A stretch of 64,000 nt of DNA from Tepidicaulis marinus (GCF_000739695.1 NZ_BBIO01000001.1:62001-126000), one strand, 5' to 3'; shown: positions 9,339 to 24,732, counted from the stretch's first letter. Made by a program: numbers and translations. Notes: a model not told the origin generated them from the sequence alone.

Positions 9339-9346
9339 TGTAGCGC

Positions 9347-9385
9347 GTCATTTGATTTTTCAGTGGTTGCCACTTGGTTTTGCAG
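9347..9385. promoter_or_regulatory. Right-end transposase-binding sites R1 and R2
   Basis: Two related 17-bp sequences lie 22 bp apart start to start: GTCATTTGATTTTTCAG at 9347-9363 and GCCACTTGGTTTTGCAG at 9369-9385. They match the left-end site (GACACTTGTTATTGCAG, reading inward) at 12 and 14 of 17 positions. The first begins exactly 8 bp inside the terminus, as does the left-end site. A 22-bp spacing also matches the length of Mu end-type sites. Confidence 0.8.
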
Positions 9386-9403
9386 CAACCTAGTTTTCCT
9401 CAG

Positions 9404-9445
9404 AACCCGCTGAGAGGCTCTTGAACGGCCTCTTAGCGGGTTTTT
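9404..9445 (+). terminator. Rho-independent terminator at the prophage right end
   Basis: AACCCGCTGAGAGG pairs with CCTCTTAGCGGGTT across an 11-base loop and is followed by TTTTT on the rightward strand. It sits between the phage end and the stop of the Prim-Pol gene. It would stop host transcription leaving tsaD from running antisense into the late genes. Confidence 0.75.
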
Positions 9446-9449
9446 CTCA

Positions 9450-10286
9450 CTATCTCGGCTTCGCCATCCCTGCCCGCAGGCCGCTTGTCACCGTGCCCTC
9501 GATCTCGGCCCGATCTAGGCCGATGGCCAGGGCGGCTTGCGTGAGCCTGGCTCTGGCCTCGGCCTCGCTTATGCGCCCTGCGGCCGTGAACTGGCCAAAG
9601 ACGAAGGCAGCGCGGTTCAGCTGGTCGTTTCGCGTGCCCGGCCGGGCCGCGCGGAGCGCGTCTTCTTCCATCTCCAGGATTTTCAGGCTCGGAGGCCCCT
9701 CAAATCGGCGCTGGCGCTTGCCAGGCTTCGGAAGGGGCTCGGCCCCGGCCGCAAGCCGCAGCCATGCAGGCATGGGCGCAGGGATGACAAGGCCCCCATG
9801 GTTCCAGCGATCGGGCGGCACAAGCCAGCGGTATGGCTTGCCGCAATGATGGATCGAGGGCGGCACGACGATCGAGCCGCCCGCGGAGCGGATATCGAGC
9901 CCTGGTGCAATCTTGCCAGCCCGATTCTTCAGCCGTTCGGGCGGCTGAATGAAATAGTAATGCAGTCCGCCCGAGCCAGACTGCGCCAGCGGCGTCGGCT
10001 GGAAAGGCTCAAGCCCGCTCGCAAAGAGCCGGTTCAGGCTTTCCAGCCCCTCGGGCACATCGACATCGAGGACGCAAATCCCGATCGGCGCACCCGTCGC
10101 CACGCCGATATTGCAGGGGGAGAAGTGCGCAGACCATTCATCGATCAGATCGGGATCGGTCGTGGCTGCATGGCAGCCGCCCTTGACGAGCGGCTTCTTG
10201 CGGGGGCCACGGGAGACCGGGAATACAGGCCAGCCGTAGCCCTGCACATAGGGCTTGGCCATTTCTGCAAAGCTGATCTCCCGCAT
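9450..10286 (-). CDS. Prim-Pol domain primase-polymerase
   Basis: The 278-residue protein shows the bifunctional primase-polymerase N-terminal fold of the archaeo-eukaryotic primase superfamily. The metal-binding DVD sits at 74-76, SGSGGLHYYF with its catalytic histidine at 103-112, and GLDIRSAGGSIVVPPS at about 129-144. The last 80 residues form a small helical domain with repeated short helices. Primases of this type make primers or extend DNA without a separate primase. No helicase domain is attached. It is the last leftward gene before the phage right end, 5 bp after the methylase gene. Mu uses host replication, so its job here is unexplained. Confidence 0.85.
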   Translation of the reverse strand: MREISFAEMAKPYVQGYGWPVFPVSRGPRKKPLVKGGCHAATTDPDLIDEWSAHFSPCNIGVATGAPIGICVLDVDVPEGLESLNRLFASGLEPFQPTPLAQSGSGGLHYYFIQPPERLKNRAGKIAPGLDIRSAGGSIVVPPSIHHCGKPYRWLVPPDRWNHGGLVIPAPMPAWLRLAAGAEPLPKPGKRQRRFEGPPSLKILEMEEDALRAARPGTRNDQLNRAAFVFGQFTAAGRISEAEARARLTQAALAIGLDRAEIEGTVTSGLRAGMAKPR

Positions 10287-10291
10287 CGCCG

Positions 10292-11095
10292 TTACCCCGA
10301 GATAATTACCTCGCCCACGCGGCCGCGTGAGCCAGGCTTTTTGCCGACGGAATAGCTGGTCTCCACGGCCTCGATCTCGAAGTCCTGGAATGTTTCCCGG
10401 ACGCCGGCCGTGTCGTTGAGCGACATGATGAAGCGGCCCTCAAGCCCCTTTAAGAGGTCTCTCAGGCGCTCGAAATCGGCCCGTGAGAAGAGTTCCTTGC
10501 CGTAGTCACTCTCGCTGCCCCAATAGGGTGGATCGAGGTAGAAAAGCGCGCCCGGCCGGTCGTAGCGGGTGATGAACTCGGCATAGGGCAAGCACTCGAT
10601 CGTCACGGCCGAAAGGCGCGTGTGGAGATCCTCCAGCATCGGCCCGAGCTTCGTGATGTCGAAACGGCCCGGCCGGTCCGGCGAGACGCCGAAATTCTGC
10701 CCGCTTGGCTTCCCGCCAAACGCCGTGCGCTGGAGGTAGAGAAAGCGGGCGGCGCGTTCCAGATCCGTCAGCGTGTCCGGATCCGTCTTCGTCAGCCGCT
10801 CGAACTCGGCCCGTGTGGTGAGCTGGAAGCGCATCATCTCCATGAAAGGCACGTAGTGGCGTTGGAGGATGCGGAAGAAGGTCGCCACCTCGCGGTTGAG
10901 GTCGTTGATCACCTCGGCGCGGGGCACCTGTGTGCGGCGCAGGAAAACGCCGCCCATACCGACAAACGGCTCCGCATAGAGCGTATGGGGCACAGCCTCG
11001 ATGCGGGCGATCAGCCGCTTTGCGAGGTTGCGCTTGCCGCCCAGCCAAGGGGCGGCGGGTGAAACGGGTTCTACAGTGTGAATCGACTCCATCAT
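10292..11095 (-). CDS. D12-class DNA adenine methyltransferase (Dam-like)
   Basis: The 267-residue enzyme has the alpha-class N6-adenine methylase order: PWLGGKRNLA near residue 16, the AdoMet loop EPFVGMGGVF (42-51), and the catalytic DPPY at 188-191. A Dam-type helical recognition segment lies between. In a phage such an enzyme usually protects the genome from host restriction or copies a host methylation pattern. It replaces the com/mom modification genes found at this end of Mu. Recognition sequence cannot be read from the protein. Confidence 0.92.
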   Translation of the reverse strand: MMESIHTVEPVSPAAPWLGGKRNLAKRLIARIEAVPHTLYAEPFVGMGGVFLRRTQVPRAEVINDLNREVATFFRILQRHYVPFMEMMRFQLTTRAEFERLTKTDPDTLTDLERAARFLYLQRTAFGGKPSGQNFGVSPDRPGRFDITKLGPMLEDLHTRLSAVTIECLPYAEFITRYDRPGALFYLDPPYWGSESDYGKELFSRADFERLRDLLKGLEGRFIMSLNDTAGVRETFQDFEIEAVETSYSVGKKPGSRGRVGEVIISG

Positions 11096-11238
11096 GTCCA
11101 GTGCTTATAAGGTTCCCGCCGCGTGCGCGGTGGCGGGACGGCCGATTCGCGGCCGGTTTCGGTTGTGGGAGTTGGCGCTCCCGGTTCGGGCTGCGCTAAT
11201 CAGCCCGGCCCCCGCCTATGAAGGGGGAGAAGTATCTA

Positions 11239-11844
11239 ATGACTGAGGAATCAACCACGCCTGCCTTTCTGAAGAGCCCATACCTGATCCAGTACTTCAC
11301 GATCGGAAGTTCAGGGCTTGTCGTGATTTCGTCATCGATATTTGTCGGTCTTCTGGCCAGCGGGGGTCTAAGCCCAAGTGCGGTGAAGATGGCGGAATTC
11401 ACCCTCATCGCCTCAATTCTCAATTTTGCCATGACAGGGTTTGTTATTTCGCTCGTGAATACGCGCGAGCCGAAATTTCTGAAAACTCCTCCGCAACAAC
11501 GTACGCGCCTGATCGGATCCGACAACTTTCTTAAAGCCAGCGATGGAAAGCTGTTTACTGGCACAACCTGCGCTAACTTCCTCACTCTGGTCTTGCTCAT
11601 CATTACGCTTGAAGAGGTCGCAAGTGAGCTGAGCGAAAGAGCCCCGTTCACCCCTTCTGCTCCGCCTCAATCAAGCAGCGATAGCCAGAGCTCTCCCGGT
11701 AAAAATGCGTCACCCGCGTCAGAACCCAGCTCCCATCCGCTTCCGCCCCAAAGCCCTGCACCTGCAGCGGCGCCTCGGCCGCAAACTCCGGCCGCCCCTG
11801 AAACTCCCCTTCAAACACCGCCGTCCCCCGGCTCAGCGCCTTGA
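11239..11844 (+). CDS. Phage cargo gene: membrane protein of unknown function
   Basis: The 201-residue product has hydrophobic segments at about residues 17-42, 56-77 and 110-128. After that comes a Ser/Pro/Ala-rich tail from about residue 133. The tail corresponds to the part read antisense to gene D, with which the gene overlaps by 197 bp. The ATG at 11239 follows GAAGGGGGAGAAG. It runs opposite to the surrounding late genes and its first 400 bp use fewer GC-ending codons, which suggests separately acquired, lysogeny-expressed cargo. No family recognised; superinfection exclusion is one possibility for a small phage membrane protein, but nothing here proves it. Confidence 0.65.
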   Translation: MTEESTTPAFLKSPYLIQYFTIGSSGLVVISSSIFVGLLASGGLSPSAVKMAEFTLIASILNFAMTGFVISLVNTREPKFLKTPPQQRTRLIGSDNFLKASDGKLFTGTTCANFLTLVLLIITLEEVASELSERAPFTPSAPPQSSSDSQSSPGKNASPASEPSSHPLPPQSPAPAAAPRPQTPAAPETPLQTPPSPGSAP

Positions 11845-12622
11845 GTTTTGCCTTGGCGGCCGCCTGCGCCTCGCTCTCGCTTGAATAGGGGTTGCGGAGG
11901 GTGAAGACCGGCGTGCCGGAACCTGCCACGACTTCCTTGCGCGCCGCGCCTTCCACATCGTGCCAATAGGCTTTGACGGCCGTGTACTTGCCCCGGTCGG
12001 CAAAGCGCGCGCGCCAGGTGCCGGCGAGATCCTCCGGCGTCACCGTCACTGCCGTGAGCAGCGCGCCGGAAGCTGCTTTCGTCTCCCCGCGCGGCACGAA
12101 CAGCAGGTGCCGGTTTGCAGGCTTCGCCACCGCATCGAGGTCGCGCGCCAGGCGCGTCAAAAAGTGCAGATCGCTCTCATCCGTCTGATCGAGATGCTCA
12201 TAAGCGGTGGCCGCCAGCGCCTCGGCCGTCTTCGGCGCCAGACCATGCTCGCCGGCAATGGTGGAGACGATGCCGCCCAGCGTCATGGCGTCCCAGCTGC
12301 GGGTTTTGGGGGCTTTCAGGCTCTTGCCCATGTCGGCCGCCTTGCCCTCGATCGTCAGCATGTCGGGCGGGCCGCTCAGCTCGATCTCGTCGCAAGTGAA
12401 GACCCCGAGCCGGGCCATGCCGGTTTCCCGGTATCCGAGCCAGGTCTCCAGCATTGCCCCCGTGAGCGGCACGGCAACCAGCCGCGCCCGGTTGTCGACC
12501 TCGATCACGGCCGTGTCGCTCTTGTCCCCGCGCTCATCCGTTACCTGGAGCGAAACCAGCCGGTCCGCGATCAGCCGGGTAATGTCAGTGCCGTTGGCGA
12601 CAATCTTGAAATCAGGGCGCAT
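11648..12622 (-). CDS. D: Baseplate hub protein, P2 gene D family
   Basis: The 324-residue protein is a P2 gpD/Mu gp44-type tail hub: N-terminal PDFKIVANGTDITRLIADRL, a central ESDLHFLTRLARDL motif, and a C-terminal half that threads through GEFQGRPEFAAE and SWVLTRVTHFYRESSG. It forms the ring that holds the spike protein at the tail end. The start at 12622 has TGGAG 6-10 bp upstream and is better than an ATG 21 bp earlier that lacks any ribosome site. It ends the tail operon after U and X. Confidence 0.9.
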   Translation of the reverse strand: MRPDFKIVANGTDITRLIADRLVSLQVTDERGDKSDTAVIEVDNRARLVAVPLTGAMLETWLGYRETGMARLGVFTCDEIELSGPPDMLTIEGKAADMGKSLKAPKTRSWDAMTLGGIVSTIAGEHGLAPKTAEALAATAYEHLDQTDESDLHFLTRLARDLDAVAKPANRHLLFVPRGETKAASGALLTAVTVTPEDLAGTWRARFADRGKYTAVKAYWHDVEGAARKEVVAGSGTPVFTLRNPYSSESEAQAAAKAKLKALSRGTAVFEGEFQGRPEFAAEAPLQVQGFGAEADGSWVLTRVTHFYRESSGYRCLIEAEQKG

Positions 12623-12666
12623 AGGGTGCTCCAATATCGCCATGTTGTAATTTTTGGGGGAGCGGA

Positions 12667-13095
12667 ATGGAGGACAATACCGAGTATTTCAACCAAGTCG
12701 CCGCAGCGCTTTTTGGGCGGCTGCTCATGGACTTCCCGAAACCGATTGATATCAAGCCAACTGACCTGGTTCCTAAAAAGATCAACGGCCAAAAGGAGCA
12801 CTGGGAAGCTGCCGATTTGGCCGGGCACGCAATTACCTGGCTCAAGAGGTACGGATATATCGACTTCGAAAACTCCTTAGATGACAAGTTCTTCGACGTC
12901 ATTATCTCGGAGAAAGGATTGACGGCATTGAATGCCACTCCATCATCAATTGACGGGAAGAAAAGTGCGGCAGAGCAAATAAAGGAAGCGGCAAAGAAAG
13001 GTGCCCTTGGCGGCGTAGAGAAGCTGGTGCCTGACATTATTAAGCACGGTACATCCTTCGCATTTGCTGCGATCAGAGCGGCAGCTGGTGTCTGA
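12667..13095 (+). CDS. Phage cargo gene: winged-helix-like protein of unknown function
   Basis: The 142-residue product looks like a winged-helix domain (about 8-98; ...AADLAGHAITWLKRYGYIDFENS then a beta hairpin and ISEKGLTALNA). A C-terminal amphipathic/hydrophobic stretch (about 110-142, ending FAFAAIRAAAGV) follows. Base composition is more AT-rich than the flanking tail genes and the strand is opposite. It lies between the starts of D and the end of X with short gaps on both sides, and GGGGGAGCGG precedes the ATG. I do not recognise a named family. The N-terminus could bind DNA or partners and the C-terminus could touch membranes. Confidence 0.7.
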   Translation: MEDNTEYFNQVAAALFGRLLMDFPKPIDIKPTDLVPKKINGQKEHWEAADLAGHAITWLKRYGYIDFENSLDDKFFDVIISEKGLTALNATPSSIDGKKSAAEQIKEAAKKGALGGVEKLVPDIIKHGTSFAFAAIRAAAGV

Positions 13096-13099
13096 CCCC

Positions 13100-13309
13100 T
13101 CAATCCCATAGCCGCACCGTCTTCACTTCCACCTTGGGGCGCAGATCCGGCAGCGTGATCGTCACGCCGGCAGGCAGCCGGGGGCCGAGCGCCGCCAGGC
13201 CTTCATTCGCCTCAAGCACGGCTTCCACCGCGCCAGACTGGACGCCGTAATGCTTCCAGCAGATGAAATCCACCATGTCTCCGTCGCTTGTGCGGTAGAG
13301 CCTGCTCAT
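13100..13309 (-). CDS. X: Tail protein X, LysM-like
   Basis: The 69-residue protein matches P2 gpX: YRTSDGDMVDFICWKHYG, a LysM-like beta-alpha-alpha-beta fold, then LPAGVTITLPDL. Tail protein X is needed for assembly of P2-like tails and probably interacts with the hub or tube end. It overlaps the end of gene U by 4 bp (ATGA), the usual coupling in this operon. Confidence 0.88.
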   Translation of the reverse strand: MSRLYRTSDGDMVDFICWKHYGVQSGAVEAVLEANEGLAALGPRLPAGVTITLPDLRPKVEVKTVRLWD

Positions 13310-13737
13310 CGGCTGCGCGCGCCTCCTGCCGCCTGTGTGCCGTCGCCGGCGTCCTCGCCGTAATGGGAAAGCACGAGCTGAAACTCAATCTTCAGCGGCA
13401 CTCCGTTGCCGTGAAAGCGGGTCTGCGTTTCGGTGATGCGCTCGACCCCGTATTTGCCCCAGACGTTCCCGCGCCCGTCGACAAGAAGCAGCGGCTCGCC
13501 GGCATTCGCCTCCTCGCGCATTGCATCGATCTGGCCGAGCCCGCCCCGGAAGTGCGGGTAGATCGTGCCCTCAAGCTCGATGCGCTCCTCTCCCGCGCCG
13601 ATGAACTGGCGCGCCGGGCGGCGGCCGAGGCGCGGCTGGGACGCCCAGCGGTACTCCTGCTCGCGCATCAGCCGCTGATAGGCGGCCGTGTCGACGGAAA
13701 AGCGGTATTTACCAAGCGCCATCATTGTCCGGCTCAT
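13306..13737 (-). CDS. U: Tail protein U
   Basis: The 143-residue product contains the P2 gpU signature: an N-terminal ALGKYRFSVDTAAYQ, RPARQFIGAGEERIELEGTIYP, and GLGQIDAMREEANAGEPLLLVDGRGNVWGKY. It acts in tail completion or baseplate assembly of contractile phages. It lies between the rightward cargo gene at 13800 and gene X. Confidence 0.9.
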   Translation of the reverse strand: MSRTMMALGKYRFSVDTAAYQRLMREQEYRWASQPRLGRRPARQFIGAGEERIELEGTIYPHFRGGLGQIDAMREEANAGEPLLLVDGRGNVWGKYGVERITETQTRFHGNGVPLKIEFQLVLSHYGEDAGDGTQAAGGARSR

Positions 13738-13799
13738 TGCTTGCCTCCCGGACTCTGCTTGTGCTCAACTGCGCCGTTCATGATGGAAAGGGCATCGCC

Positions 13800-14192
13800 A
13801 TGAAAGCCATTTGGGGTATCGCGCTGGTCATATGTGTCGGCCTTGTCGGGATCGGCATTCTCAATATGACAGGACAAACCGGCTGGTATGGCGGGCGGGT
13901 TCCCCTGAACGATGCAACAATTTCTGATTGGCATCGCGCGACGGAACGAGACCGCGTCGACACATCCAAGGTCTGGATTGCGGTTTGGATGGGGCGCGAA
14001 AACTATGAGCAGCTTGGGCCAGAAGCAGAAGTCATGATCGCACTCAATGCGAAACACCTTGCAGAATGTGTCACGAACACGTCGAAGCCGTGGGCACAGC
14101 AGCCTGATGGTGAGAACACTCAAGCCGCTGACCTTGCCAGCACCTGTCTGAACATGGCGGACGACATTCCCCGCGCCGATAAATTCAAGTAG
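13800..14192 (+). CDS. Phage cargo gene: exported or membrane-anchored protein of unknown function
   Basis: The 130-residue product starts MKAIWGIALVICVGLVGIGI, a signal-anchor or uncleaved signal sequence, followed by a soluble periplasm-type domain (about 30-130). Two cysteines near residues 90 and 115 could form a disulfide. The ATG follows GGAAAGGG at a suitable distance. It sits on the opposite strand between the tape-measure stop (4 bp away) and gene U, with AT-richer codons. I recognise no family. An envelope role in the lysogen, such as blocking phage entry, is inference from position only. Confidence 0.65.
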   Translation: MKAIWGIALVICVGLVGIGILNMTGQTGWYGGRVPLNDATISDWHRATERDRVDTSKVWIAVWMGRENYEQLGPEAEVMIALNAKHLAECVTNTSKPWAQQPDGENTQAADLASTCLNMADDIPRADKFK

Positions 14193-14196
14193 CGCC

Positions 14197-16302
14197 TCAA
14201 TCATGCAACGCCCTCCGGGTGCCCGCTTCCATGCGTTGCATCACCTTGCGGACGAGCTCCTCCATATCCATCCCCGGCGCCGCATGAACCGTAATCTGGT
14301 TCGTGACCTGAATAGGCCGCAGCGCAGCCGGAAATGCAGCCGTGGATGAGGGCACCGCGCCGGCCGCAATAGAGGTAGCCCCGGCGGCATCCGCCGCCGG
14401 CATGCCCCCCACTGCCTGACCGATCTTTCCGCCAAGAAATTCCCCGCCCAGTCCGCCGATCACGCCGCCCAGGATGCCCCCGATCGTCGTGCCGATAATG
14501 GGGACGATTGAGCCCAGAGCGGCACCGGCTGCCGCCCCGCCCAATGCGCCGGCAAGACCGCCGCCCGACCGGCCGACCGCCTCTGCATTGCCGCTGCGCG
14601 CCGCACCGATGAGGTCGACCGCGCCCAGGCCGACCGCCAGAGGTAAAGCTGCCCGGCCAAGCAGCTTCCCGCCGCCACGCAGTGCCCGGCCGAGCCGTCC
14701 GGCCCGCGCAGCGCCCCGGCCTGCGCGGCCTTTCCCGCCAGCGCCAAGGCCACCGAACCCGCCTGGCGGCATATTCGTCACATGCACAGGCGTAACGCCG
14801 CCAAAGCCGCCAAGACCGGCACCCACCGTGCTTGTCGCGCGCGCAGCAGCACCTTTGCGCCCGCGCGAAAAGAGTTTTCCGATGCCGAGCTTGCGCGCGG
14901 CGATGGCCGAGCCCACCAAGCCCGCTCCGATTGTGCCGATCGTGAAGGCCGTATTCGCCCCTTCCGCCCCAAGATTGTTGATAGCGGAGGCAAGCAAATC
15001 CACCGGCTTGCTTAACTTGCTGTCTGCGAAACGCTCCCATGCCGTCGAGAGCGCGCCGAGCGACTGGTTGAACGTCCGGCTTGCGCGCGCGGCATCCTTA
15101 GCAAGCGCATCACCTGTGCCGCCCGTTTGAAGAAGATCGTCCAGCTGTTTGAATTCGCCGGTGCGGTTAAATTCAGACGCGAGGACGTTGATGCCGCGAA
15201 TGGACTCATCCCCGAATATCTCGCCGAGCTTTTTCACATCGCCTTCGGTGGCGGTGATCAAGTCCTTCAGCACATCCGTGACGGCGCGCATTTCCCTGCG
15301 GCCTTCGGCAAGGGCTTCCGGATCCCAGACATCGACACCGATATCCTCGACATCCTCCGATTTGGAGCGCAGTTCCGCCAGGGTGCGCTCAAAGGCCGTG
15401 ACTGCCTGCTCGGCCGAGCCAGTGCCTTTGCGGAACATCTGAATAAGCGCGCCTTGCTCCGATGCGGCAGCCGCACCGCTGCGGCCGACGCCGGCATAGG
15501 CAGCCATTAACCGCTCGCTCTGTGTTGCCTGATCCTTCAGAGCGAAAGAGGCAAACTTGCCTTGCTCGACAAAGCGGTCGAGCTGACGAAGCACCTCTTC
15601 GGCGTCCCGGATACTGTACTTGTCCCACATATTGGCGACCATCGCGCCAATGTCCTGGCCGGCTGCGCCTGATGCCTGAACGGCCAGCGCAATGTTGAGG
15701 AGGTTTTCACGGGCGAGATCGAGATCACCGGTCTTTTCGACAATCGTTTCGACGGCGGCGGTGATTTCGCCGGCATCGACGCGTACATCATCAGCAAGCG
15801 CAATGTCGAAAATATCTTTCTTCAGCGCATTGATTTCAGCCTGGCTCTTGTTGGCTTGAATGCCGAGGCGGACAAATCGTTCTTCCAGGTTGCCGACTTG
15901 CCGGATCGTGGCACCAAGGCCCACGGCACCCACCAAGGCGGTGTATTTATTCGCGGCGAAGTCGAGCCCTTTCCCGGCCAATGCTCCCATTTTGCCCAGC
16001 TTCCGGGACTGAGCGGCCGCCCGGCCGAGCGTGCGGCCGTAATTCGCGGCGCCGCGCGCGGCACGGGCGATTTCTTCCTTCGTGCGGCGCATGGACTGGC
16101 CGAGGCGGGAAGACGAGCGATCTAGACGGTCCGTCTCACGCGCGGTATTGCGGGCAGAACGGGCATGGGACTTGAGGTCCCGCTCCTGAGCCTTGACCGA
16201 TTTGCCGACACCGCCGATCGTTTGGCGCGCTTGCCCCATCGTGGAGCGGAAGCTGCCGCCAAGCGTTGCGCCGACCTCGATGCCGTAACCGAGCTTCTTC
16301 AT
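14197..16302 (-). CDS. T: Tail tape measure protein
   Basis: The 701-residue protein has an alpha-helical N-terminal half with coiled-coil character (about 20-120), a TP901-type tape-measure core (LEERFVRLGIQANKSQAEINALKK to about residue 440), and a long glycine/alanine-rich hydrophobic region (about 440-640) that would insert into the host membrane during DNA delivery. It sets tail length. The ATG at 16302 overlaps the stop of the E' frame (ATGA) and is preferred to an upstream ATG inside E'. It is followed by a cargo gene rather than directly by U. Confidence 0.9.
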   Translation of the reverse strand: MKKLGYGIEVGATLGGSFRSTMGQARQTIGGVGKSVKAQERDLKSHARSARNTARETDRLDRSSSRLGQSMRRTKEEIARAARGAANYGRTLGRAAAQSRKLGKMGALAGKGLDFAANKYTALVGAVGLGATIRQVGNLEERFVRLGIQANKSQAEINALKKDIFDIALADDVRVDAGEITAAVETIVEKTGDLDLARENLLNIALAVQASGAAGQDIGAMVANMWDKYSIRDAEEVLRQLDRFVEQGKFASFALKDQATQSERLMAAYAGVGRSGAAAASEQGALIQMFRKGTGSAEQAVTAFERTLAELRSKSEDVEDIGVDVWDPEALAEGRREMRAVTDVLKDLITATEGDVKKLGEIFGDESIRGINVLASEFNRTGEFKQLDDLLQTGGTGDALAKDAARASRTFNQSLGALSTAWERFADSKLSKPVDLLASAINNLGAEGANTAFTIGTIGAGLVGSAIAARKLGIGKLFSRGRKGAAARATSTVGAGLGGFGGVTPVHVTNMPPGGFGGLGAGGKGRAGRGAARAGRLGRALRGGGKLLGRAALPLAVGLGAVDLIGAARSGNAEAVGRSGGGLAGALGGAAAGAALGSIVPIIGTTIGGILGGVIGGLGGEFLGGKIGQAVGGMPAADAAGATSIAAGAVPSSTAAFPAALRPIQVTNQITVHAAPGMDMEELVRKVMQRMEAGTRRALHD

Positions 16303-16696
16303 TTCTCTGCCTGTTTCAGTTGCGCGGCCGCTTCGCGCCACTGGTCAAACTCATCGAGCGGCATGTCGAGCCATTCGGCAAGATTGCCGCCCGACACGCT
16401 GCAAAGCTGGAGGACGGAAAGCCTCAACGATCCGGCAGAGGAGGCTCCCCCGGCTTTCCCGGCTGCAGCATCTCCTCGAAAGCCTTCTGCAGCTTGCCCC
16501 AGTCAGCCAAGTCAAGCTCTTCCAGTTCTTCGCGGGTTAGCTCCGTGAGCGAGCAGAAATACATCAGCTCGCGCTCCGCCTCTTCCTTGTAAGTCTGGGC
16601 GGCCAGTTCATCGCGCACCTTCGGCCGGCGCATCTTGATGTCGCGGATAGTCGTGCCGTTCACGGTAACGGGGTGATCGAGTTTGATATGCTTCAT
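16299..16696 (-). CDS. E: Tail assembly chaperone E/E' made by a -1 ribosomal frameshift
   Basis: Without a shift, E is 90 residues and stops at 16424; it reads MKHIKLDHPVTVNG..., typical of the P2 gpE/Mu gp41 tail chaperones. At 16460-16454 the leftward strand has GGGAAAG in the phase G GGA AAG. That is the classic slippery heptamer, identical to the one in the lambda G-T chaperone gene. A -1 slip there adds 51 residues ending AEWLDMPLDEFDQWREAAA, matching the E' extension type, and stops at 16299 overlapping the tape-measure start. The fusion would be 132 residues. Both products normally bind the tape measure during tail assembly. Confidence 0.85.
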
Positions 16697-16719
16697 CTCT
16701 TTTCCTCACGTCCTGCCGC

Positions 16720-17217
16720 TTAGAGACCCAGCGCGCGACGTTGATCGGCCATCTGGTCGACGCCTGCGATGCGGCGGATCATGTTCTCCGCATCGATCTC
16801 CACCACCGGCTGATCGGCGACGGAGATTTTCAGGTAATGCGGCGTGAACATGAGCTTCTTGTCGGGCATCGAGCCGCGCTGCCAGGTACCGGGCTCGACT
16901 TCCCGCAGGAGACCGCGCATCTGATAGATCACGCTTTCGGTTTCCCCGTTCGGGCCCACTTGCGCGCCGCGCAAGGTGAGCGGCGTGTCGGTCTTGCCGA
17001 TATGGGCATAGAGTGCGTTGGAGAACTCTGAGAAGGTCATGGAACATTCCATCTTCTCCACCGCACCCATGTCGATATCGATCGGCGCGGCCATACCGCC
17101 GGCCAGATACTCTTCCACTTGCAGCGAGACGGTCGGCGGCACGCCTTCCTTGATCTTACCGGCATAGCCGAAACCGTCGATGAAGCCGGTGAAGTTCCGG
17201 AGTGTCTTGGGCAACAT
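16720..17217 (-). CDS. FII: Major tail tube protein, P2 FII family
   Basis: The 165-residue protein begins MLPKTLRNFTGFIDGFGYAGKI and contains IDIDMGAVEKMECSMTFSEF, the pattern of P2 gpFII. It forms the inner tube inside the contractile sheath. It lies 80 bp downstream of the sheath gene; that gap holds a hairpin (CTCAGGGG paired with CCCCTGTGAG near 17254-17283) that may tune the ratio of tube to sheath. Confidence 0.92.
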   Translation of the reverse strand: MLPKTLRNFTGFIDGFGYAGKIKEGVPPTVSLQVEEYLAGGMAAPIDIDMGAVEKMECSMTFSEFSNALYAHIGKTDTPLTLRGAQVGPNGETESVIYQMRGLLREVEPGTWQRGSMPDKKLMFTPHYLKISVADQPVVEIDAENMIRRIAGVDQMADQRRALGL

Positions 17218-17297
17218 GTCTGAAATCCTTTTCAGTGCCTGATTAAATGGCTCTCAGGGGCAGTTCGGCCGCCCCTGTGAGGGCTCGATGCGCGCCT

Positions 17298-18488
17298 TTA
17301 GGCGGCTTCGAGAACCTGGTTGACCAGCTCTTCGTAGTAGCCGGCGTTGCGGTGCGCCCGGAACGTGAGGCGCTCAAGCGGCGCGGGCGGCTCGATGTCG
17401 AAATCGAGATAGAGCTTGCCCGCCATGAGCTGATCCGGCGTGTTGAGCTCGGGGTCGAGCCAGACGGTGCCGCCCAAGATCGCGCCCCGTGCCTGGAGCG
17501 AGCCAAGATAGGCTTGCACGCTGTCCTGGATATCGAGCACGAGCTGAGCGGAAAGCGGGCGGTCCATGGCCCAGAGGAAGGCGCGCTCGACGCTCTCATA
17601 GACCATGTCGGCCGTGCGCCGCACGGAGAGGAACGCCCAAAGCGGATCGTCCGAACAGGTCCGGTTGCCCCAGAGCCGGTAGCCGTCTTTCAAAACGACG
17701 GTCGCCACCTCGTTTTCGTTAAGCAGGTTCGCCTCCGAATTCGGATCGGACATGTTGAAGCCGATCGGCCGGGCCGTACCGACAATGCCGTTCAGCACCT
17801 GATTGGAAGGCGACCACCAGAAACCGCGCTCATTATCCCGCTTGGCAATGGCGCCAGCCACACGGGCAGAGACGGGCTGCACGACGGCCTGCGAAAGAGC
17901 CGTGTCCCAAACCTTGACGGCCGGGTCGGTCACATAAACGCGCGCCGAGCCCCAGTCTTCCCGCCAGGTAATCGCTTCGGTAGTCGTCGTGTTCGGGCCA
18001 TCGGCGACAATGACAGCCCGCAGCTTCTCGGCAATCCCGACAAGCTCCGCCACGACCGGATTGGCGGCAGCTGCAGGCCGGTCACCCGTAAAGCCGGGCG
18101 CGCAGAGAATGCGCGGGAGCACTTTGACCTCGTTCTCGGCCGAGAGGAAAGCATGGACACCGGTGCCGAGCGCGCTGTCCCCCACGATGTTCGACATGGT
18201 TGCCGTGGTGTCGACACCTTCTTCGACGCGGATGATAACGATCGTTGCACCCGTCTGATCGTAGATTGCATCCACCGCATCTTTCAGCGTGCCGGCATCG
18301 CCAAGATCGGCAGCCTTGCGCGGCTGATTGGCAAGTAGTACCGGCGTGTTGAGCGGGAACGTTGCCCCAACCGCGTCGGGCGCCGTGCCGATAAGGCCGA
18401 TGACCGAGGATTTCACCGTCTGGATGGGACGGATGCCCTCGTCGATTTCGATTACTTCTACACCGTGCAAAAACTGTTCAGGCATCAA
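17298..18488 (-). CDS. FI: Tail sheath protein, P2 FI family
   Basis: The 396-residue protein has the sheath pattern: N-terminal HGVEVIEIDEGIRPIQTVKSSVIGLIGTAPDA, a variable middle, and a C-terminal half with VKVWDTALSQAVVQPVSARVAGAIAKRDNERGFWWSPSNQ and GNRTCSDDPLWAFLSVRRTADM. It forms the contractile outer sheath. A second ATG one codon later (18485) is equally possible. P2 order (sheath, tube, E, tape measure) is kept. Confidence 0.95.
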   Translation of the reverse strand: MMPEQFLHGVEVIEIDEGIRPIQTVKSSVIGLIGTAPDAVGATFPLNTPVLLANQPRKAADLGDAGTLKDAVDAIYDQTGATIVIIRVEEGVDTTATMSNIVGDSALGTGVHAFLSAENEVKVLPRILCAPGFTGDRPAAAANPVVAELVGIAEKLRAVIVADGPNTTTTEAITWREDWGSARVYVTDPAVKVWDTALSQAVVQPVSARVAGAIAKRDNERGFWWSPSNQVLNGIVGTARPIGFNMSDPNSEANLLNENEVATVVLKDGYRLWGNRTCSDDPLWAFLSVRRTADMVYESVERAFLWAMDRPLSAQLVLDIQDSVQAYLGSLQARGAILGGTVWLDPELNTPDQLMAGKLYLDFDIEPPAPLERLTFRAHRNAGYYEELVNQVLEAA

Positions 18489-18500
18489 GCCCTCCTTCGG

Positions 18501-19169
18501 TTAAGGCTGCGGCCAAGAAAGGCCGTCGAGAATGGTTTGAATAGCGGGCACATCACCGGCCGCTTCCACTTGCGTTTTGGCGGCGCGCCGGATGCCTTCG
18601 ATAGCCGCGCCGACCTGCAGCCAGGCATCACGGGCTGCAAGCACGGTCTGGGCAACGGCCGCAAGGTCAGCCCCGTCACCGGGAATGCAGGCGCTCAAGA
18701 CCGGATAGTCGGCAGGGTCGGGACTTGCATCCGCCATAAAGGCTTCCGCTTCACGCTCCTTGCGCTGATAGGTCCAGGCTTGTCCCTCTCCAGGTGTGAT
18801 GAACAGCATCCGGGCCGCTTCAGCATCGGTGTCGATTTTCTGAAGCGCTGCCGCTTTCACTTCTGCAAACGGAGGAGCTGGCATCTCGGACAACGCCTCG
18901 GCGGGCGGCTCGATACCAAGCTCGGTGATTTTGTGTTTGCTGCGATCGGCAAGCCAGTAGGTATGCCCGCGCCAATCGGGAACAATTGTCCACGCTCCCT
19001 CGGCATAGACAGCCGCCTCATGTTCTGCCACTTCCGGCGGTGCCGTGAAGGTGGCAAAAGCGGGGAGCAGCCAAGCGCCCTCCTGCTTTGGATTTGCCCG
19101 CGCGGGCGTCGTGCCGCTCAGCTCGCCGGTCAGTGCATCGAAATGATAAAGGGTAGGTGCCATCGTCAC
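18501..19169 (-). CDS. Tail fibre assembly-like protein
   Basis: The 222-residue protein follows the fibre gene with a 4-bp overlap, the usual position of fibre chaperones. Its N-terminal part (YHFDALTGELSG and a proline-rich stretch, then DWRGHTYWLADRSKHKITELG) resembles the variable DUF4376/fibre-assembly proteins. The remainder is helical. It probably helps fold or trimerise the adhesion fibre. The match is by position and weak sequence pattern, so the family assignment is moderate. Confidence 0.65.
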   Translation of the reverse strand: MTMAPTLYHFDALTGELSGTTPARANPKQEGAWLLPAFATFTAPPEVAEHEAAVYAEGAWTIVPDWRGHTYWLADRSKHKITELGIEPPAEALSEMPAPPFAEVKAAALQKIDTDAEAARMLFITPGEGQAWTYQRKEREAEAFMADASPDPADYPVLSACIPGDGADLAAVAQTVLAARDAWLQVGAAIEGIRRAAKTQVEAAGDVPAIQTILDGLSWPQP

Positions 19170-20173
19170 TGGTTCCCTGCATAGATAATCCGCATCCGGG
19201 CGATGTTTTTGGGCCGGGTCTCTGCCGCAATGCGCGGAATGCCGTTCGTGCCGTCGCTGATCGGCTGGCCCGTTTCATCGGCGGTTCCTTCGCTATCTTC
19301 AAAGGATGGATAGTTGGTCGTACCGGCCGGACCGGCGCGAAGAATTCGCTCCATGTAATGGGTGTGCCCCTGAAACGCGTCTTCCTGCGCATTGCCCTGG
19401 CCGCGTCCGCTGTCAATTCCGCGTCCATGGTCCCAGGCACGCGAAAAATAACCGCGAAAATCCGGCAACCGGAAAGTGGTGCTGCCATCACCGACCGAGT
19501 AATAGCCGGTCTGACCGCTGAGCCAGAAAGCTTCGGATACAATAAGGTTCGATTGCGACGCCCTCTGCCACAACGCAGCAGCATCCACTCGTGAAATCAA
19601 GGCGCCGTCCGCCTCGTACCACCCGGCTGGCGGCGTCTCAAACGGCCAATCCATTTCCGCGCCCACGGGAACGGTTTGAAATCCTGCCACGGCCTGTTGC
19701 ACAAATTCGGTGGTCGAGAGGGCAAGCGAGCTGTCACCAGGGGCCTGCGTCGGGGCTGTCGGTGTGCCGGTAAGGGCAGGAGAATTAAGCGGCGCTTTCA
19801 GGGCAAGCGCGTTCATCACGGTTGTGGCAAAGTTCGGATCATCGCCCAGCGCTGCCGCTAGCTCGTTCAATGTGTCGAGCGCTGCGGGAGAGCTGGCCAC
19901 GAGCGCGGCAATGGCTGCCTGCACAAAGGCGGTATTTGCCGCGCTCAGCGAATTGTTTCCGGGCGGCTGCGTCGGCACTGTGGGGTTACCAGTGAAGACA
20001 GGCGAGGCAATCGGCGCGCGCAGCTCGACTTCCTGCTTTAGGTAAGCCGTGCGATTCGCAAGCTGCTTTGCCTGATTGTTGGAAATACCGTCCGGGCCGC
20101 CTTGAACGGGATCCGTGAGCTCAAGCTGATAAATACCACCTTCCCATGTGGCGGCTTCAGGCAGATTGGCCAT
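19166..20173 (-). CDS. H: Tail fibre / phage tail-collar protein
   Basis: The 335-residue protein starts MANLPEAATWEGGIYQLE, followed by two imperfect repeats of about 60 residues (FTGNPTVPTQPPGNNSLSAANTAFVQ and LTGTPTAPTQAPGDSSLALSTTEFVQ). A collar-like C-terminal part carries GWYEADGALISR, TFRLPDFRGYFSRAWDHG and GHTHYMERI. It is probably the host-recognition fibre. The start at 20173 lies inside the end of gene I. The short length compared with Mu or P2 fibres suggests a compact adhesin. Confidence 0.85.
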   Translation of the reverse strand: MANLPEAATWEGGIYQLELTDPVQGGPDGISNNQAKQLANRTAYLKQEVELRAPIASPVFTGNPTVPTQPPGNNSLSAANTAFVQAAIAALVASSPAALDTLNELAAALGDDPNFATTVMNALALKAPLNSPALTGTPTAPTQAPGDSSLALSTTEFVQQAVAGFQTVPVGAEMDWPFETPPAGWYEADGALISRVDAAALWQRASQSNLIVSEAFWLSGQTGYYSVGDGSTTFRLPDFRGYFSRAWDHGRGIDSGRGQGNAQEDAFQGHTHYMERILRAGPAGTTNYPSFEDSEGTADETGQPISDGTNGIPRIAAETRPKNIARMRIIYAGNQ

Positions 20174-20732
20174 CGACAACTCCGTGTGTATATGCGCCGT
20201 CATAGGTGATGGCGGCGTTATAGAGGTTCAGCGCCTGGTCGTAGCGCAGTTCATGTAGCTTGCAGCGCTCAGGTTGAGCGCGGTCGAGGATCTCTCGGAC
20301 CTGCGCGGCCTGGGCGATGGAAACGGGTTTCTGCAGCACGATCGAGTACCAGGCCCAGTGTTCGCTCTCGCTGTAAAAATGGACCCCGTCGTAACTGGCG
20401 CGTCCGTCATACCGGCGCGCATCGAGCCGCTCGATAAATTCCACCTCGCCGTAACCGGCCGCGCGCAGCGCATCGCGCATCGCGCCTGGAGAGCCTTTTC
20501 GTTTATGAAATGCGAGGCTCGCAGCGGTTGTGTTCCGCCGCGCCTCAACCGACCAGTTCTCATCCCAGAGATCCACCGACCAGGCCCAGGCAAGCCAAGG
20601 CAGAATGTCGAGCGGGCAAGTGTGCGGATCCCAGACATCGGCAATGCGGACCGGGATAGCGAGCGCATGCTCGATGCTTGCATCGAGGTCGCGCTCAAGC
20701 TGGCTGGCATTGGGCGGCAGAAGTTCAGTCAC
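20157..20732 (-). CDS. I: Baseplate/tail protein I
   Basis: The 191-residue product matches P2 gpI: LLPPNASQLERDLDASIEHALAIPVRIADVWDPHTCPLDILPWLAWAWSVDLW then a helical region and the conserved RKGSPGAMRDALRAAGYG. It forms part of the baseplate wedge that joins fibres to the baseplate. It overlaps J by 8 bp and the fibre by 17 bp. Confidence 0.92.
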   Translation of the reverse strand: MTELLPPNASQLERDLDASIEHALAIPVRIADVWDPHTCPLDILPWLAWAWSVDLWDENWSVEARRNTTAASLAFHKRKGSPGAMRDALRAAGYGEVEFIERLDARRYDGRASYDGVHFYSESEHWAWYSIVLQKPVSIAQAAQVREILDRAQPERCKLHELRYDQALNLYNAAITYDGAYTHGVVDGQSA

Positions 20733-21708
20733 CGGCCACCTCCGTGGTCAAGGTGATGCCCGTGCAATATGCCGCCTGGTAACGTGTGGGTTCGACATCG
20801 ACCGCCGGAGCGTTAAGGCGCACCTTTTCGACGCCGGCAACCGTAAGCGCCGCTTTGAGACCGCTTTCTGTTACACGCCGGCCGATCTTGTGCTGGCCAG
20901 TAATGTATTTCTCGACGGCCGCATTGGCCGAAGCAAGAATGAGCGGCGCCTCCGGTCCATCGGTGATTTCGAGCACCGCATCGACCGTGTAGGTGACGAT
21001 CTCAACGGGAAGAACGAATACCGTGTCGCAGAGCGGCCGGACATATTCATCCGTCAGATGTGCCTCGACGGCATCGAGAGTTGCCTGATCCGGGACGCCG
21101 TCGCCCTCATGCGCCATCACGATGACGGTTACATCGCCGGGCGCGGAACGGAAAGCATCCGCGTCCTTCACGTTTGCGGCGATGCCCCCTTCGGCAAACT
21201 CGTAGGTGATGGTCACAATGCCGGGAACGCCCGTTTCCACCTGGATATCGGTGGGAATTTCCCCGGCCGAAAGCGCATTGAAGATATAGCTGCCGCGCGG
21301 CCCGGCAACGGATAGGGCTTCCGGTGCGAGTTGAACACGGCGGCGCAGTGACGCATCGTCTTCATAAACCGGCTCGATCGGAGGTAAGGCTTCCGGATCG
21401 CCGGGAGAGAGCAGCCGGCGCTCGACGCTGTAATTTGCCGCAATGTGATCGAGGTTGTTGCCTGCCGCGAAGGCCAGCATGATCGAGCGGGCTTTGTCGT
21501 TCTCGCGCTGGCGGATCAACAATTCGCGGTGTGCCGCCGTCTCCAGCAGCTTCATAGCCGGATCGCTTTCAAGGAAGGCGGCATCATAGTCTTCGTTGCG
21601 TTCCAGAAAATCGGCTTTCAGCGCCGCAAGAATCGCCTCATAGGAAAGCTCCTCGATAACCTGCGGCTTTTGAAGCGAAGAAAGATCAATGACATCGAAG
21701 CGGCTCAT
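20725..21708 (-). CDS. J: Baseplate assembly protein J
   Basis: The 327-residue protein has the gpJ/Mu gp47 pattern: FLERNEDYDAAFLESDPAMKLLETAAHRELLIRQRENDKARSIMLAFAAGNNLDHIAANY at the N-terminus, RRVQLAPEALSVAGPRGSYIFNAL, and a C-terminal repeat of ferredoxin-like strands. It builds the wedge of the contractile baseplate. It overlaps W by 4 bp. Confidence 0.93.
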   Translation of the reverse strand: MSRFDVIDLSSLQKPQVIEELSYEAILAALKADFLERNEDYDAAFLESDPAMKLLETAAHRELLIRQRENDKARSIMLAFAAGNNLDHIAANYSVERRLLSPGDPEALPPIEPVYEDDASLRRRVQLAPEALSVAGPRGSYIFNALSAGEIPTDIQVETGVPGIVTITYEFAEGGIAANVKDADAFRSAPGDVTVIVMAHEGDGVPDQATLDAVEAHLTDEYVRPLCDTVFVLPVEIVTYTVDAVLEITDGPEAPLILASANAAVEKYITGQHKIGRRVTESGLKAALTVAGVEKVRLNAPAVDVEPTRYQAAYCTGITLTTEVAGD

Positions 21709-22043
21709 AGGGTGATGCCCTCCAGCGTCAGAGTTTCACCCGTGCGCAGCCAGCGGCCTTTGAGATCGAGCGTGAACCGGCCGGCCTCCGCTGCCGCCAC
21801 CCGTACATGCTTCAGCTCGAAACGCGGCTCCCAGCGATCGAGCGCCTCGGCCACGTCGGCATAAATGTCCACCAGGAGCTCCGGCGTCATTGGCCGGTCG
21901 ATCTTCTCGAACAGGGCCGAACCATATTCACGGCGCATGACGCGCGTGCCGATCGGCGTCGACAGAATGTCGCCGATCGACTGGATCAGGTGATCCTGAC
22001 CCGACAGGGCTTTGCCTGTATGCGCGCTCATGCCCGTGGTCAT
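21705..22043 (-). CDS. W: Baseplate wedge protein W (gp25-like)
   Basis: The 112-residue protein carries the gp25/GPW signature: HLIQSIGDILSTPIGTRVMRREYGSALFEKIDRPM, then VDIYADVAEALDRWEPRFEL. Proteins of this family form the core bundle of the baseplate wedge where sheath assembly begins. The start overlaps the end of the small gene upstream by 1 bp. Confidence 0.92.
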   Translation of the reverse strand: MTTGMSAHTGKALSGQDHLIQSIGDILSTPIGTRVMRREYGSALFEKIDRPMTPELLVDIYADVAEALDRWEPRFELKHVRVAAAEAGRFTLDLKGRWLRTGETLTLEGITL

Positions 22044-22240
22044 CAGTCTTTAATCTCCGTTTCTACCGGCGTTTTCTTTGTCTTCGTCTTGGGCGCGTCC
22101 GGCGCAGCAAGGTGGCCGGAAAGCAGGAGATACTTGGCGGCGCGCGCAGCAAGCTGGATGCGCTCACCCGGCTGCCAGGGCTCGCCGTTCTCCTTGCGGA
22201 GCGGGAGCTGCTTCAGAACTTCATAGGTTTCCGTTTTCAT
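22043..22240 (-). CDS. Small phage tail-module protein of unknown function
   Basis: The 65-residue protein reads MKTETYEVLKQLPLRKENGEPW, then ERIQLAARAAKYLLLSGHLA and a lysine/threonine-rich tail. A TGAGGC ribosome site supports the start at 22240; the longer reading would begin inside gene V. Short proteins of this kind occur between V and W genes of Mu-like phages, but no function is established. Probably co-translated with W. Confidence 0.7.
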   Translation of the reverse strand: MKTETYEVLKQLPLRKENGEPWQPGERIQLAARAAKYLLLSGHLAAPDAPKTKTKKTPVETEIKD

Positions 22241-22247
22241 GGCTGCC

Positions 22248-22895
22248 TCAATGGTCATGGTGGTTGGAGTTCGCGCCGCCGGCGAGAATGTCACCGGTCG
22301 CATTGATGTTGCCGGTCACGTCGAGATTGCCCTCAAGCGAAAAGTTACCTTTGAGAGAGGCTTGAGCCGCACCACCTTCGGTCGATTGAATGCTGACAAA
22401 GGGCGCGGTGATGGAGACGTTGGCCGACGCTTCCACTGCGATGGACGCGGCAGAGGTCACAGTGACATCGCCTCCTGCATCGACAGTCACGGTGCCCTCC
22501 GCCACGACCTCGACATCACCCTTCACATTGGCAAAAAGACGTCCTTCGCCACGGCTATATTCGATCACCGTGCCATCGGCGAACTCGATCCTGGCTACAT
22601 CCGCCGAGGCACCTGGTGCCGGCGCGGCCTGGCTGTAAATTGCCGGCATGACGATGCCCTGCGCCGGGTTGCCGGAAGGTGAGATCACGAGCACCTGCTC
22701 GCCAATCTCAGGCGCCCACCAAGTCCGGTCTCCGCCGGCGCGGGCTGTTACCCAGGGAAGCCAGCCGCTCTGCCGCTCTCCAATATTCACGCGCACCCGC
22801 GCCTTGCCGTAATCGGCGGCAGAGATGGTGCCGAGCTGCGCGATATTGGCCAAGCGCCGTTCGAGTTCAGCAATGCGGTATTCAAGATCAAGCAT
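22248..22895 (-). CDS. V: Baseplate spike protein V
   Basis: The 215-residue protein has an N-terminal OB-fold part (GTISAADYGKARVRVNIGERQSGWLPWV) and GEQVLVISPSGNPAQGIVMPAIY, followed by a repetitive beta-helix (VTVDAGGDVTVTSAASIAVEASANVSITA) and a C-terminal HHDH. In P2 and related spikes a terminal HxH binds iron at the membrane-piercing tip; the end here could do so. The start at 22895 is preferred because GGGGAC lies just upstream. Confidence 0.92.
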   Translation of the reverse strand: MLDLEYRIAELERRLANIAQLGTISAADYGKARVRVNIGERQSGWLPWVTARAGGDRTWWAPEIGEQVLVISPSGNPAQGIVMPAIYSQAAPAPGASADVARIEFADGTVIEYSRGEGRLFANVKGDVEVVAEGTVTVDAGGDVTVTSAASIAVEASANVSITAPFVSIQSTEGGAAQASLKGNFSLEGNLDVTGNINATGDILAGGANSNHHDH

Positions 22896-23433
22896 CGCCG
22901 TCCCCACTCGACGCGATCAGATCGCCGTTCAAATAAAGCTCGCGCAGATATTCCGGCGCTTCGTCATCCGGGCCTTCAAGCGTGATTGTCGTCAGTTCCA
23001 GCTCAGCCCCATGACAGAGAACACCGGCGAACATGACCGGCGCGCTCTCGTTGAGCTGAAGGCCCGCCGCCTGCGGTGTGGTGCAGGTGATGACCGTACC
23101 GCCCAACGTGTCGTCCGCCCGGAAGGCTTCCACAATGCTCTCGATCAGGCGGTCGAACTCGATCTCGCTGGCGCTCTCGTCATTGAAGGAACGAAAGCCC
23201 CGGATCACCCACGAATGCTGGACCTCATTAACCGCATAGGTCAGCACACGGGCGCGGCGGCGGATACGGCGCACGAACCAGCCCTTGATCTTGCCATCCT
23301 GCTCGTAGCGGGCACGGAATTTGTCCTGGCGCTGTGCCCAGCGCTCATGGCGCTGCACGATGCCGGCATCCGCCACACCCTCGATCTTGGCGGCAATCGC
23401 CTCGCGGATGAGCTCCATGTCCTGTTGCATCAC
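22888..23433 (-). CDS. Tail terminator-like / tail completion protein
   Basis: The 181-residue protein lies between the HK97 gp10-like gene and V, where Mu-like and P2-like phages carry a tail-terminator or connector protein. It is alpha/beta, with ARVLTYAVNEVQHSWVIRGFRSFNDESASEIEFDRLIESIVEAFR in the middle, similar to the Mu gp37 type. The N-terminus has several possible ATGs close together. Function is assigned mainly by position. Confidence 0.6.
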   Translation of the reverse strand: MMQQDMELIREAIAAKIEGVADAGIVQRHERWAQRQDKFRARYEQDGKIKGWFVRRIRRRARVLTYAVNEVQHSWVIRGFRSFNDESASEIEFDRLIESIVEAFRADDTLGGTVITCTTPQAAGLQLNESAPVMFAGVLCHGAELELTTITLEGPDDEAPEYLRELYLNGDLIASSGDGDA

Positions 23434-23948
23434 CGCGCCTCCGCCATGCGGGCAGCGATGCGCTCCAGCGCCTGACCGAAAATCGCCTGCACCTGATCTT
23501 CACCTTCCTCGAAGGTCTCGGTGAACATGAAAGCGCCTTCCGTGCCTTCACGCGCGATCTTGCGGGCGATGGCAAAGGCCACGCCTTTGGCTTCCTGCGG
23601 GGCGAGCCCGAGCTTGATCCGCGCCCAATCCTCTATCGGCTTTACAGGCGGCATATGCGGCTTCGTGCCGAGCTCGACGGGAGCTGCATGGGCGAGTGAC
23701 GTCGCAACAGCGCCGATTACGCCGTCTGCAATGCGGCCAGGTTCACGCGCCGAGATCGAACCCTTGAGCCCGCCGCCACCGCCCACACCGACCGGCGTGC
23801 GTTCCTGTACTTCACGCTGCAGGAAAAGCGAAGCCTCCCAGGTTGCCCCGTAAAGCTCCTCTTCGACGATCTCGGGCGCTTCTTCAAAGGCTGCGATCAG
23901 CGCCTCTGCCGAGTGAAGATCGATACGGATATCAAGCCCGTTACTCAT
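23430..23948 (-). CDS. HK97 gp10-like tail completion protein
   Basis: The 172-residue product starts DIRIDLHSAEALIAAFEEAPEIVEEELYGATWEASLFLQREVQERTPVGVGGG, the usual gp10/Mu gpG-like pattern. A central AHAAPVELGTKPHMPPVKPIEDWARIKLGL matches the conserved ExGTxPHxPP block. It joins head and tail. It overlaps its neighbours by 1 and 4 bp. Confidence 0.85.
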   Translation of the reverse strand: MSNGLDIRIDLHSAEALIAAFEEAPEIVEEELYGATWEASLFLQREVQERTPVGVGGGGGLKGSISAREPGRIADGVIGAVATSLAHAAPVELGTKPHMPPVKPIEDWARIKLGLAPQEAKGVAFAIARKIAREGTEGAFMFTETFEEGEDQVQAIFGQALERIAARMAEAR

Positions 23949-24604: not shown

Positions 24605-24630
24605 CTGCGGACCTGTTTCTGAAATTCATG

Positions 24631-24666: not shown

Positions 24667-24677
24667 ACTTCTTTCTA

Positions 24678-24710: not shown

Positions 24711-24732
24711 CTCTGCTCTCGGGGTTATTCCG

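What the first reader, a model, noticed from the sequence alone, without database searches (positions are those of the whole stretch)
11239..14192. Three rightward cargo genes scattered among leftward tail genes
At 11239, 12667 and 13800 short genes with their own ribosome sites and AT-richer composition run against the tail operon and are inserted between D, X, U and the tape measure without breaking them. Together with 27794 they look like independently acquired genes that could be expressed from the silent prophage. None matches a family known to me; one is a winged-helix protein, two are membrane or export types.
Basis: partly seen in the sequence, partly recalled or inferred. Interest (0 to 1): 0.75.

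Follow-up and report, generated by a model that had tools for sequence, protein, structure and literature searches.

The report
Backward cargo genes in phage tail operon
A dormant Mu-like virus in a bacterial chromosome carries three small foreign genes facing backwards at the seams of its tail-gene block; related viruses carry other small genes, or none, at the same seams, which marks these as recurrent docking sites for accessory genes that may protect the host cell from other viruses.

Summary
A 35.7-kb Mu-like prophage (5-bp target duplication; empty site in a sister genome) carries three rightward, AT-richer genes in its leftward tail operon: M1 after gpD, M2 at X|D, M3 at T|U. Relatives confirm acquisition. 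Over 95 loci with readable T|U and 60 with readable X|D the usual gaps are 13 and 4 bp. Six other prophages carry unrelated opposite-strand genes at T|U (one also at X|D) and another a co-directional gene at X|D; nearly all encode exported or membrane proteins. Near-identical phages (gpD 97-98%) differ by presence, absence or identity of the cargo. In host-family prophages the site after gpD carries complete Gabija or candidate defence pairs. M2 is a winged-helix protein of phrog_2266, whose enterobacterial members sit in the P2 gpA-gpQ defence hotspot; M3 is an exported two-cysteine protein; M1 has three membrane helices and a tail overprinting gpD antisense. Best reading: 'morons' facing the lysogenic way, probably lysogen-expressed, with superinfection exclusion the likeliest role. 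Function and expression are inferred; no promoter was found. The kind is known (Tab of Mu-like phage JBD26); the sites and proteins look new.

The parts
9339..45078 (.). Mu-like prophage, 35,740 bp, TG...CA ends, target duplication AAGGG at 9334-9338 and 45079-45083
   Evidence: empty site in sister genome G039; MuA and MuB Pfam hits
11239..11844 (+). M1: 201-aa protein, three predicted TM helices; C-terminal Pro/Ser-rich tail overprints gpD antisense
   Evidence: no homologue found
11648..12622 (-). gpD baseplate hub, start re-assigned to 12622
   Evidence: Pfam PF05954 1.8e-17, phrog_52 2.8e-122; homologues begin at residue 7-8
12667..13095 (+). M2: 142-aa winged-helix protein of phrog_2266 with amphipathic C-terminal helices, inserted at X|D
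   Evidence: phrog_2266 1.2e-27; AF2 pLDDT 79, winged-helix matches; X|D closed in relatives
13100..13309 (-). gpX tail protein
   Evidence: Pfam PF05489 1.5e-21
13306..13737 (-). gpU tail protein
   Evidence: Pfam PF06995 5.7e-39
13800..14192 (+). M3: 130-aa exported or anchored protein with two conserved cysteines, inserted at T|U
   Evidence: T|U closed in relatives
14197..16341 (-). tail tape measure protein T
   Evidence: phrog_973 1.9e-54
27794..27994 (+). M4: possible 66-aa two-TM protein among head genes
   Evidence: length not beyond chance, P 0.35
38939..39907 (-). MuB-like ATPase
   Evidence: Pfam PF09077 2.4e-25
39992..41944 (-). MuA-like transposase
   Evidence: Pfam PF02914 2.1e-62
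43878..44588 (+). likely lysogeny repressor (LexA/S24-type by eye), same strand as M1-M3
   Evidence: sequence and position only

Best explanation
M1, M2 and M3 are prophage accessory genes (morons) acquired separately at three seams of a myoviral tail module: after gpD, at X|D and at T|U. They face the lysogenic direction, against the late operon. Shown here: the seams are closed in most relatives, open to different small genes in others, and polymorphic between near-identical phages. Inferred: they are transcribed in the lysogen, independently of the late operon; when the prophage is induced, late transcription crosses them antisense and lowers their expression, so the cargo works in lysogeny and fades in lysis. 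Most likely role, also inferred: superinfection exclusion or lysogenic conversion, with M1 and M3 acting at the cell envelope (blocking adsorption or DNA entry) and M2, a winged-helix protein with an amphipathic, possibly membrane-seeking C-terminus, acting inside the cell as an anti-phage factor or its regulator.
For: Junction survey: T|U median gap 13 bp (n=95), X|D 4 bp (n=60). Occupants: T|U in L097, L129, L138, L145, L148, L078 and the window, all opposite strand; X|D in L097 and the window (opposite) and L068 (co-directional). Near-isogenic pairs: L138 and L145 hold two different genes at T|U while eight members of the same gpD cluster (linked at 90%; those listed against L138 and L145 are 96-98% identical) have 15-17 bp; L068 has 540 bp at X|D with an intrinsic terminator while L086 (97.9%) has 31 bp. 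GC and codon frame. Site after gpD in the host family: Gabija GajA 3.6e-213 and GajB 2.9e-251, PDC-M53A/B, an HATPase pair. phrog_2266 homologues lie between portal and replication genes in P2-like prophages with changing neighbours, the region described as a defence hotspot in PMC9122126. Precedent: Tab, minus-strand, own promoter, late operon of Mu-like JBD26 (PMC10884400).
Against: No promoter or terminator beyond chance around M1-M3, although the scan covers only E. coli-type sigma-70 sites. No PADLOC match for M1-M4. M1 and M3 have no phage homologue, so function cannot be transferred. L068 and L094 cargo is co-directional, so opposite orientation is a tendency, not a rule. M1 seems to have lost its original stop at the junction with gpD, so it may be decaying.
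Confidence: 0.7

Rival explanations
1. The three frames are chance antisense ORFs in GC-rich DNA within ordinary intergenic spacers.
For: Antisense ORFs over 150 aa are common here, for example 12612-13109(-) and 13734-14204(-); chance of an M3-length ORF on any strand with any start is 0.17.
Against: The spacers do not exist in most relatives; M2 matches phrog_2266 at 1.2e-27; M3 shares 28 invariant columns with a chromosomal protein; claimed frames score best by codon usage.
Confidence: 0.05
2. Acquired but inert passengers: insertions tolerated at gene ends and now decaying, with no benefit to phage or host.
For: M1 runs into gpD antisense without its own stop, and the L145 cargo likewise runs into the T gene; no promoter found; M1 lacks homologues.
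Against: All three frames are intact with plausible RBS; occupants repeatedly encode exported or membrane proteins; the sibling site after gpD carries intact defence systems.
Confidence: 0.2
3. The cargo acts as virion or lysis components, or as tail-assembly helpers, rather than in the lysogen.
For: Position among tail genes; some proteins carry signal peptides or TM segments.
Against: Opposite strand to the late operon; absent in most relatives with intact tails; different unrelated proteins at the same site.
Confidence: 0.05

Closest known systems
Tab / anti-Tab of Mu-like phage JBD26 (PMC10884400)
   Same: Single small moron on the strand opposite to the late operon of a Mu-like prophage, expressed from the prophage, giving anti-phage defence.
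   Different: Tab lies between the terminase genes, has its own promoter and a companion anti-Tab; M1-M3 lie in the tail module, no promoter was found, no sequence match shown.
Morons / regions of genomic plasticity of P. aeruginosa Mu-like phages (PMC4378225)
   Same: Short AT-richer accessory ORFs inserted between conserved genes, mechanism of acquisition unknown.
   Different: Those regions are mainly in the left arm; here the cargo sits in the tail arm and runs against it.
P2-like gpA-gpQ defence hotspot (PMC9122126)
   Same: Homologues of M2 (phrog_2266) occupy this hotspot in E. coli, Salmonella and Klebsiella prophages.
   Different: In the window the gene sits at X|D of a Mu-like prophage, alone.
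Tha/Ith noncontiguous operon of S. aureus phage 80alpha (PMC11087260)
   Same: Opposite-strand gene nested in a phage operon, with reciprocal lysogenic and lytic transcription.
   Different: There the defence gene is in the lysogeny operon and the antisense gene is its inhibitor; here the cargo itself is antisense to the late operon, and transcription is unknown.

Membership tests
Phage moron (definition in PMC4378225) | Inserted between two genes that are adjacent in related phages | tested here: met
   X|D and T|U closed in most relatives; polymorphic between near-identical phages
Phage moron (definition in PMC4378225) | Base composition unlike the neighbours | tested here: met
   GC 0.507-0.562 against 0.610
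Phage moron (definition in PMC4378225) | Own promoter and terminator | tested here: inconclusive
   Consensus scan finds nothing beyond chance around M1-M3; it does not cover other promoter types. A clear terminator exists in the L068 occupant
Phage moron (definition in PMC4378225) | Expressed from the repressed prophage, not needed for growth | not testable with these tools
   needs RNA-seq and deletions
phrog_2266 | Full-length profile match of M2 | tested here: met
   E 1.2e-27, residues 1-133 on profile 1-143 of 144
Cargo of the P2 gpA-gpQ hotspot | Location between portal gpQ and replication gpA of a P2-like phage | tested here: not met
   M2 lies at X|D of a Mu-like prophage; only its enterobacterial homologues lie in the hotspot
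Winged-helix fold (M2) | Three-helix core with beta-hairpin wing | tested here: met
   AF2 pLDDT 79; matches are mostly winged-helix chains at Z about 7-8, a common fold
Tab-like antisense moron | Opposite strand inside the late operon of a Mu-like prophage | tested here: met
Tab-like antisense moron | Sequence relation to Tab and an anti-Tab partner | not tested
   no direct alignment was made; PHROGs and PADLOC named none
Noncontiguous operon | One transcript spanning the opposite-strand genes | not testable with these tools
   no rightward terminator seen between M1 and M3; transcription unknown

The most novel reading that the evidence does not exclude
M1, M2 and M3 form one noncontiguous rightward transcription unit in the lysogen: a single RNA that is sense for the three cargo proteins and antisense for D, X, U and T. 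It would deliver exclusion proteins and at the same time silence the tail genes of an incoming sibling phage, while late transcription after induction switches the cargo off. The tail seams would then be a general docking architecture that couples defence cargo to the lysis-lysogeny switch in many phages.
Probability: 0.12. Interest if true: 0.8.

Novelty: new member of a known kind. Interest (0 to 1): 0.5.

Why it matters
Morons are a main source of phage-exclusion and lysogenic-conversion genes, but are hard to find from sequence. If the T|U and X|D seams and the end of gpD are recurrent docking sites in P2-type tail modules, across Mu-like and other chassis, reading those seams is a simple way to collect unknown small envelope and defence proteins. 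It also raises a testable idea: opposite orientation to the late operon ties cargo expression to lysogeny without a dedicated regulator.

Tried and rejected
PADLOC, NCBIfam and Pfam gave no family for M1-M3. P0001 and P0003 have no match in annotated phages; the M1 core has none in a 339-genome sample of the phylum; the M3 alignment finds only itself in viral contigs. Weak phrog_2266 hits in other Alphaproteobacteria (E about 1e-4 over short stretches) were not taken as members. T|U gaps in L075, L087, L088, L093 and L103 were rejected as cargo: GC-rich, and probably tape-measure C-terminal sequence or a shifted frame; the L136 gap is a broken gpU match and L139's 184 bp held no convincing gene. 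A single-sequence model of M3 was poor (pLDDT 47) and was not searched. The protein at 28098-29489 had no viral relative besides this prophage, so the M4 junction could not be compared. A paper on morons (PMC3594210) was not held. Accession searches for M2 homologues found no paper.

Full report
WHAT IS THERE. The window holds a Mu-like prophage transcribed leftward: MuA (39992-41944, DDE_2 E 2e-62) and MuB (38939-39907) lie at the right, head genes in the middle, and a P2-type contractile tail module at the left. In a sister genome of the same genus the flanks are contiguous: window 6500-9338 joins 45079-46592 with a 5-bp overlap, AAGGG. The prophage therefore spans 9339-45078 with TG...CA ends, as expected for a transposing Mu relative, and is 35,740 bp long (an earlier notebook entry is off by one base).

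THE THREE GENES. M1 (11239-11844), M2 (12667-13095) and M3 (13800-14192) run rightward; dam, gpD, X, U and the tape measure run leftward. M2 fills the X|D junction: its stop lies 4 nt from X's stop, and its start 44 nt from the likely gpD start at 12622. M3 fills T|U: 4 nt from T's stop, 62 nt from U's start. M1 lies after gpD, and its last 65 or so codons overlap gpD antisense. There the codon signal belongs to gpD (0.03 against -0.43 per codon), while the M1 core reads best in its own frame. This is what an insertion that lost its own stop would look like; the cargo of relative L145 runs into the T gene in the same way. All three inserts are AT-richer. M4 at 27794 is hydrophobic but no longer than chance allows.

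COMPARISON OF THE JUNCTIONS. Homologues of gpD were collected from viral contigs, genome contigs and whole genomes, and the gaps T|U, U|X and X|D were measured. Most relatives are closed: median gaps 13, -1 and 4 bp. Genuine occupants other than the window are: T|U in L097 (156-aa lipoprotein), L129 (132 aa, three TM), L138 (112 aa, three TM), L145 (more than 170 aa, several hydrophobic segments by eye), L148 (74 aa, hydrophobic) and L078 (111 aa, signal peptide by eye, Cys-rich), all on the strand opposite to the tail genes; X|D in L097 (93 aa, signal peptide, opposite) and L068 (131 aa, signal peptide, co-directional); U|X in L094 (65 aa, two TM, co-directional). After clustering gpD at 90% identity, T|U is occupied in 6 of 61 clusters and X|D in 3 of 40, the window included. 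One cluster of ten holds L138 and L145 with two different genes, while the other eight have 15-17 bp at T|U; those listed against L138 and L145 are 96-98% identical to them in gpD. L068 and L086 (97.9%) differ by the X|D cargo, which ends in a clean intrinsic terminator. The occupants scanned belong to no Pfam or PHROG family above cut-off, except L068's (phrog_23218, unknown); L145 was not scanned. So these seams are recurrent sites of gain and loss.

THE SITE AFTER gpD. In four prophages of the host family, not Mu-like by the absence of a DDE_2 transposase in those genomes, the DNA just after gpD holds AT-richer cargo: complete Gabija in G004; a PDC-M53A/B pair in G006; an opposite-strand HATPase protein with a 462-aa partner in G011; membrane and lipoprotein genes in G003. 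Thus the same tail module, on different replication chassis, carries cargo at its end, some of it of experimentally established defence families.

WHAT THE PROTEINS ARE. M2 is a full-length member of phrog_2266. Its homologues (25-33% identical) were found in P2-like phages and prophages of Salmonella, Klebsiella and E. coli, in every annotated case looked at beside the replication gene or between portal and replication genes, with changing neighbours (reverse transcriptase and HTH, Fic, ComEC-like, DinI), in Nitratiruptor phage NrS-1 and on a Vibrio plasmid. That portal-replication interval is the gpA-gpQ hotspot of PMC9122126, home of old and tin. AlphaFold2 on a 26-sequence alignment (pLDDT 79) gives a winged helix followed by two C-terminal helices; structure matches are mostly winged-helix chains at Z about 7-8, which shows a common fold and no function. 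M3 has an N-terminal hydrophobic segment and two cysteines conserved with an exported chromosomal protein of another alphaproteobacterium (28 identical columns). M1 has three TM segments and no relatives. None matches PADLOC.

HOW IT PROBABLY WORKS. Shown: acquisition, intact frames, opposite orientation, site recurrence, export or membrane nature of most cargo. Inferred: lysogenic expression, damping by antisense late transcription after induction, and exclusion of other phages. The inference rests on precedent. Tab of the Mu-like phage JBD26 is a minus-strand moron in the late operon with its own promoter and blocks tail assembly of invaders (PMC10884400). Fc02, a B3-like Pseudomonas phage, expresses an exclusion gene from the strand opposite to its lytic operon (PMC9936078). 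Tha shows reciprocal sense and antisense control in phage 80alpha (PMC11087260). STnc6030 shows that a prophage RNA antisense to late genes can itself exclude the same phage (PMC7067206). Against it stands the lack of detectable promoters. I put acquisition as morons at about 0.9, lysogenic expression of at least one at 0.65, and an anti-phage role for at least one at 0.45.

NOVELTY. The kind is known. What seems new, within the papers searched, is the use of the T|U and X|D seams of the P2-type tail module as recurrent sites for opposite-strand cargo, and the proteins themselves.

Noticed in passing
L051:10505-14193 (G004): Complete Gabija system (GajA, GajB) 272 bp after gpD of a prophage in the host's family.
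   Followed up: yes
L049:6803-10338 (G011): Opposite-strand pair after gpD: 719-aa protein with two HATPase domains and a 462-aa partner; looks like an undescribed defence candidate.
   Followed up: partly
L050:6418-9356 (G006): PDC-M53A/B candidate defence pair after gpD, followed by a pentapeptide-repeat protein.
   Followed up: partly
L007:313-504, L009:3808-4002, L043:3811-4002: In P2-like phages the phrog_2266 gene starts against a divergent 63-64-aa ORF whose start overlaps it by 2 nt; in L046 that small ORF is kept while the phrog_2266 gene is replaced.
   Followed up: partly
11648-11844: M1 coding frame overprints the gpD 3' end antisense, giving a Pro/Ser/Ala-rich tail.
   Followed up: yes
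L097 (UViG_3300037424_003001): Distantly related phage contig (gpD 44% identical) with both T|U and X|D seams filled by opposite-strand exported proteins, the same layout as the window.
   Followed up: yes
9450-11095: Prophage right end carries a DNA adenine methylase and a primase/polymerase-like N-terminal domain after the tail module; a homologous methylase follows gpD in G199 and G053 prophages.
   Followed up: partly
42426-43274: ParB-like protein, by eye, between MuA and the likely repressor of a Mu-like prophage; not tested with a profile.
   Followed up: no
L053:9261-9942 (G614): Chromosomal homologue of M3 next to a lipoprotein gene, between an esterase and a radical-SAM (hemN-like) gene.
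   Followed up: partly
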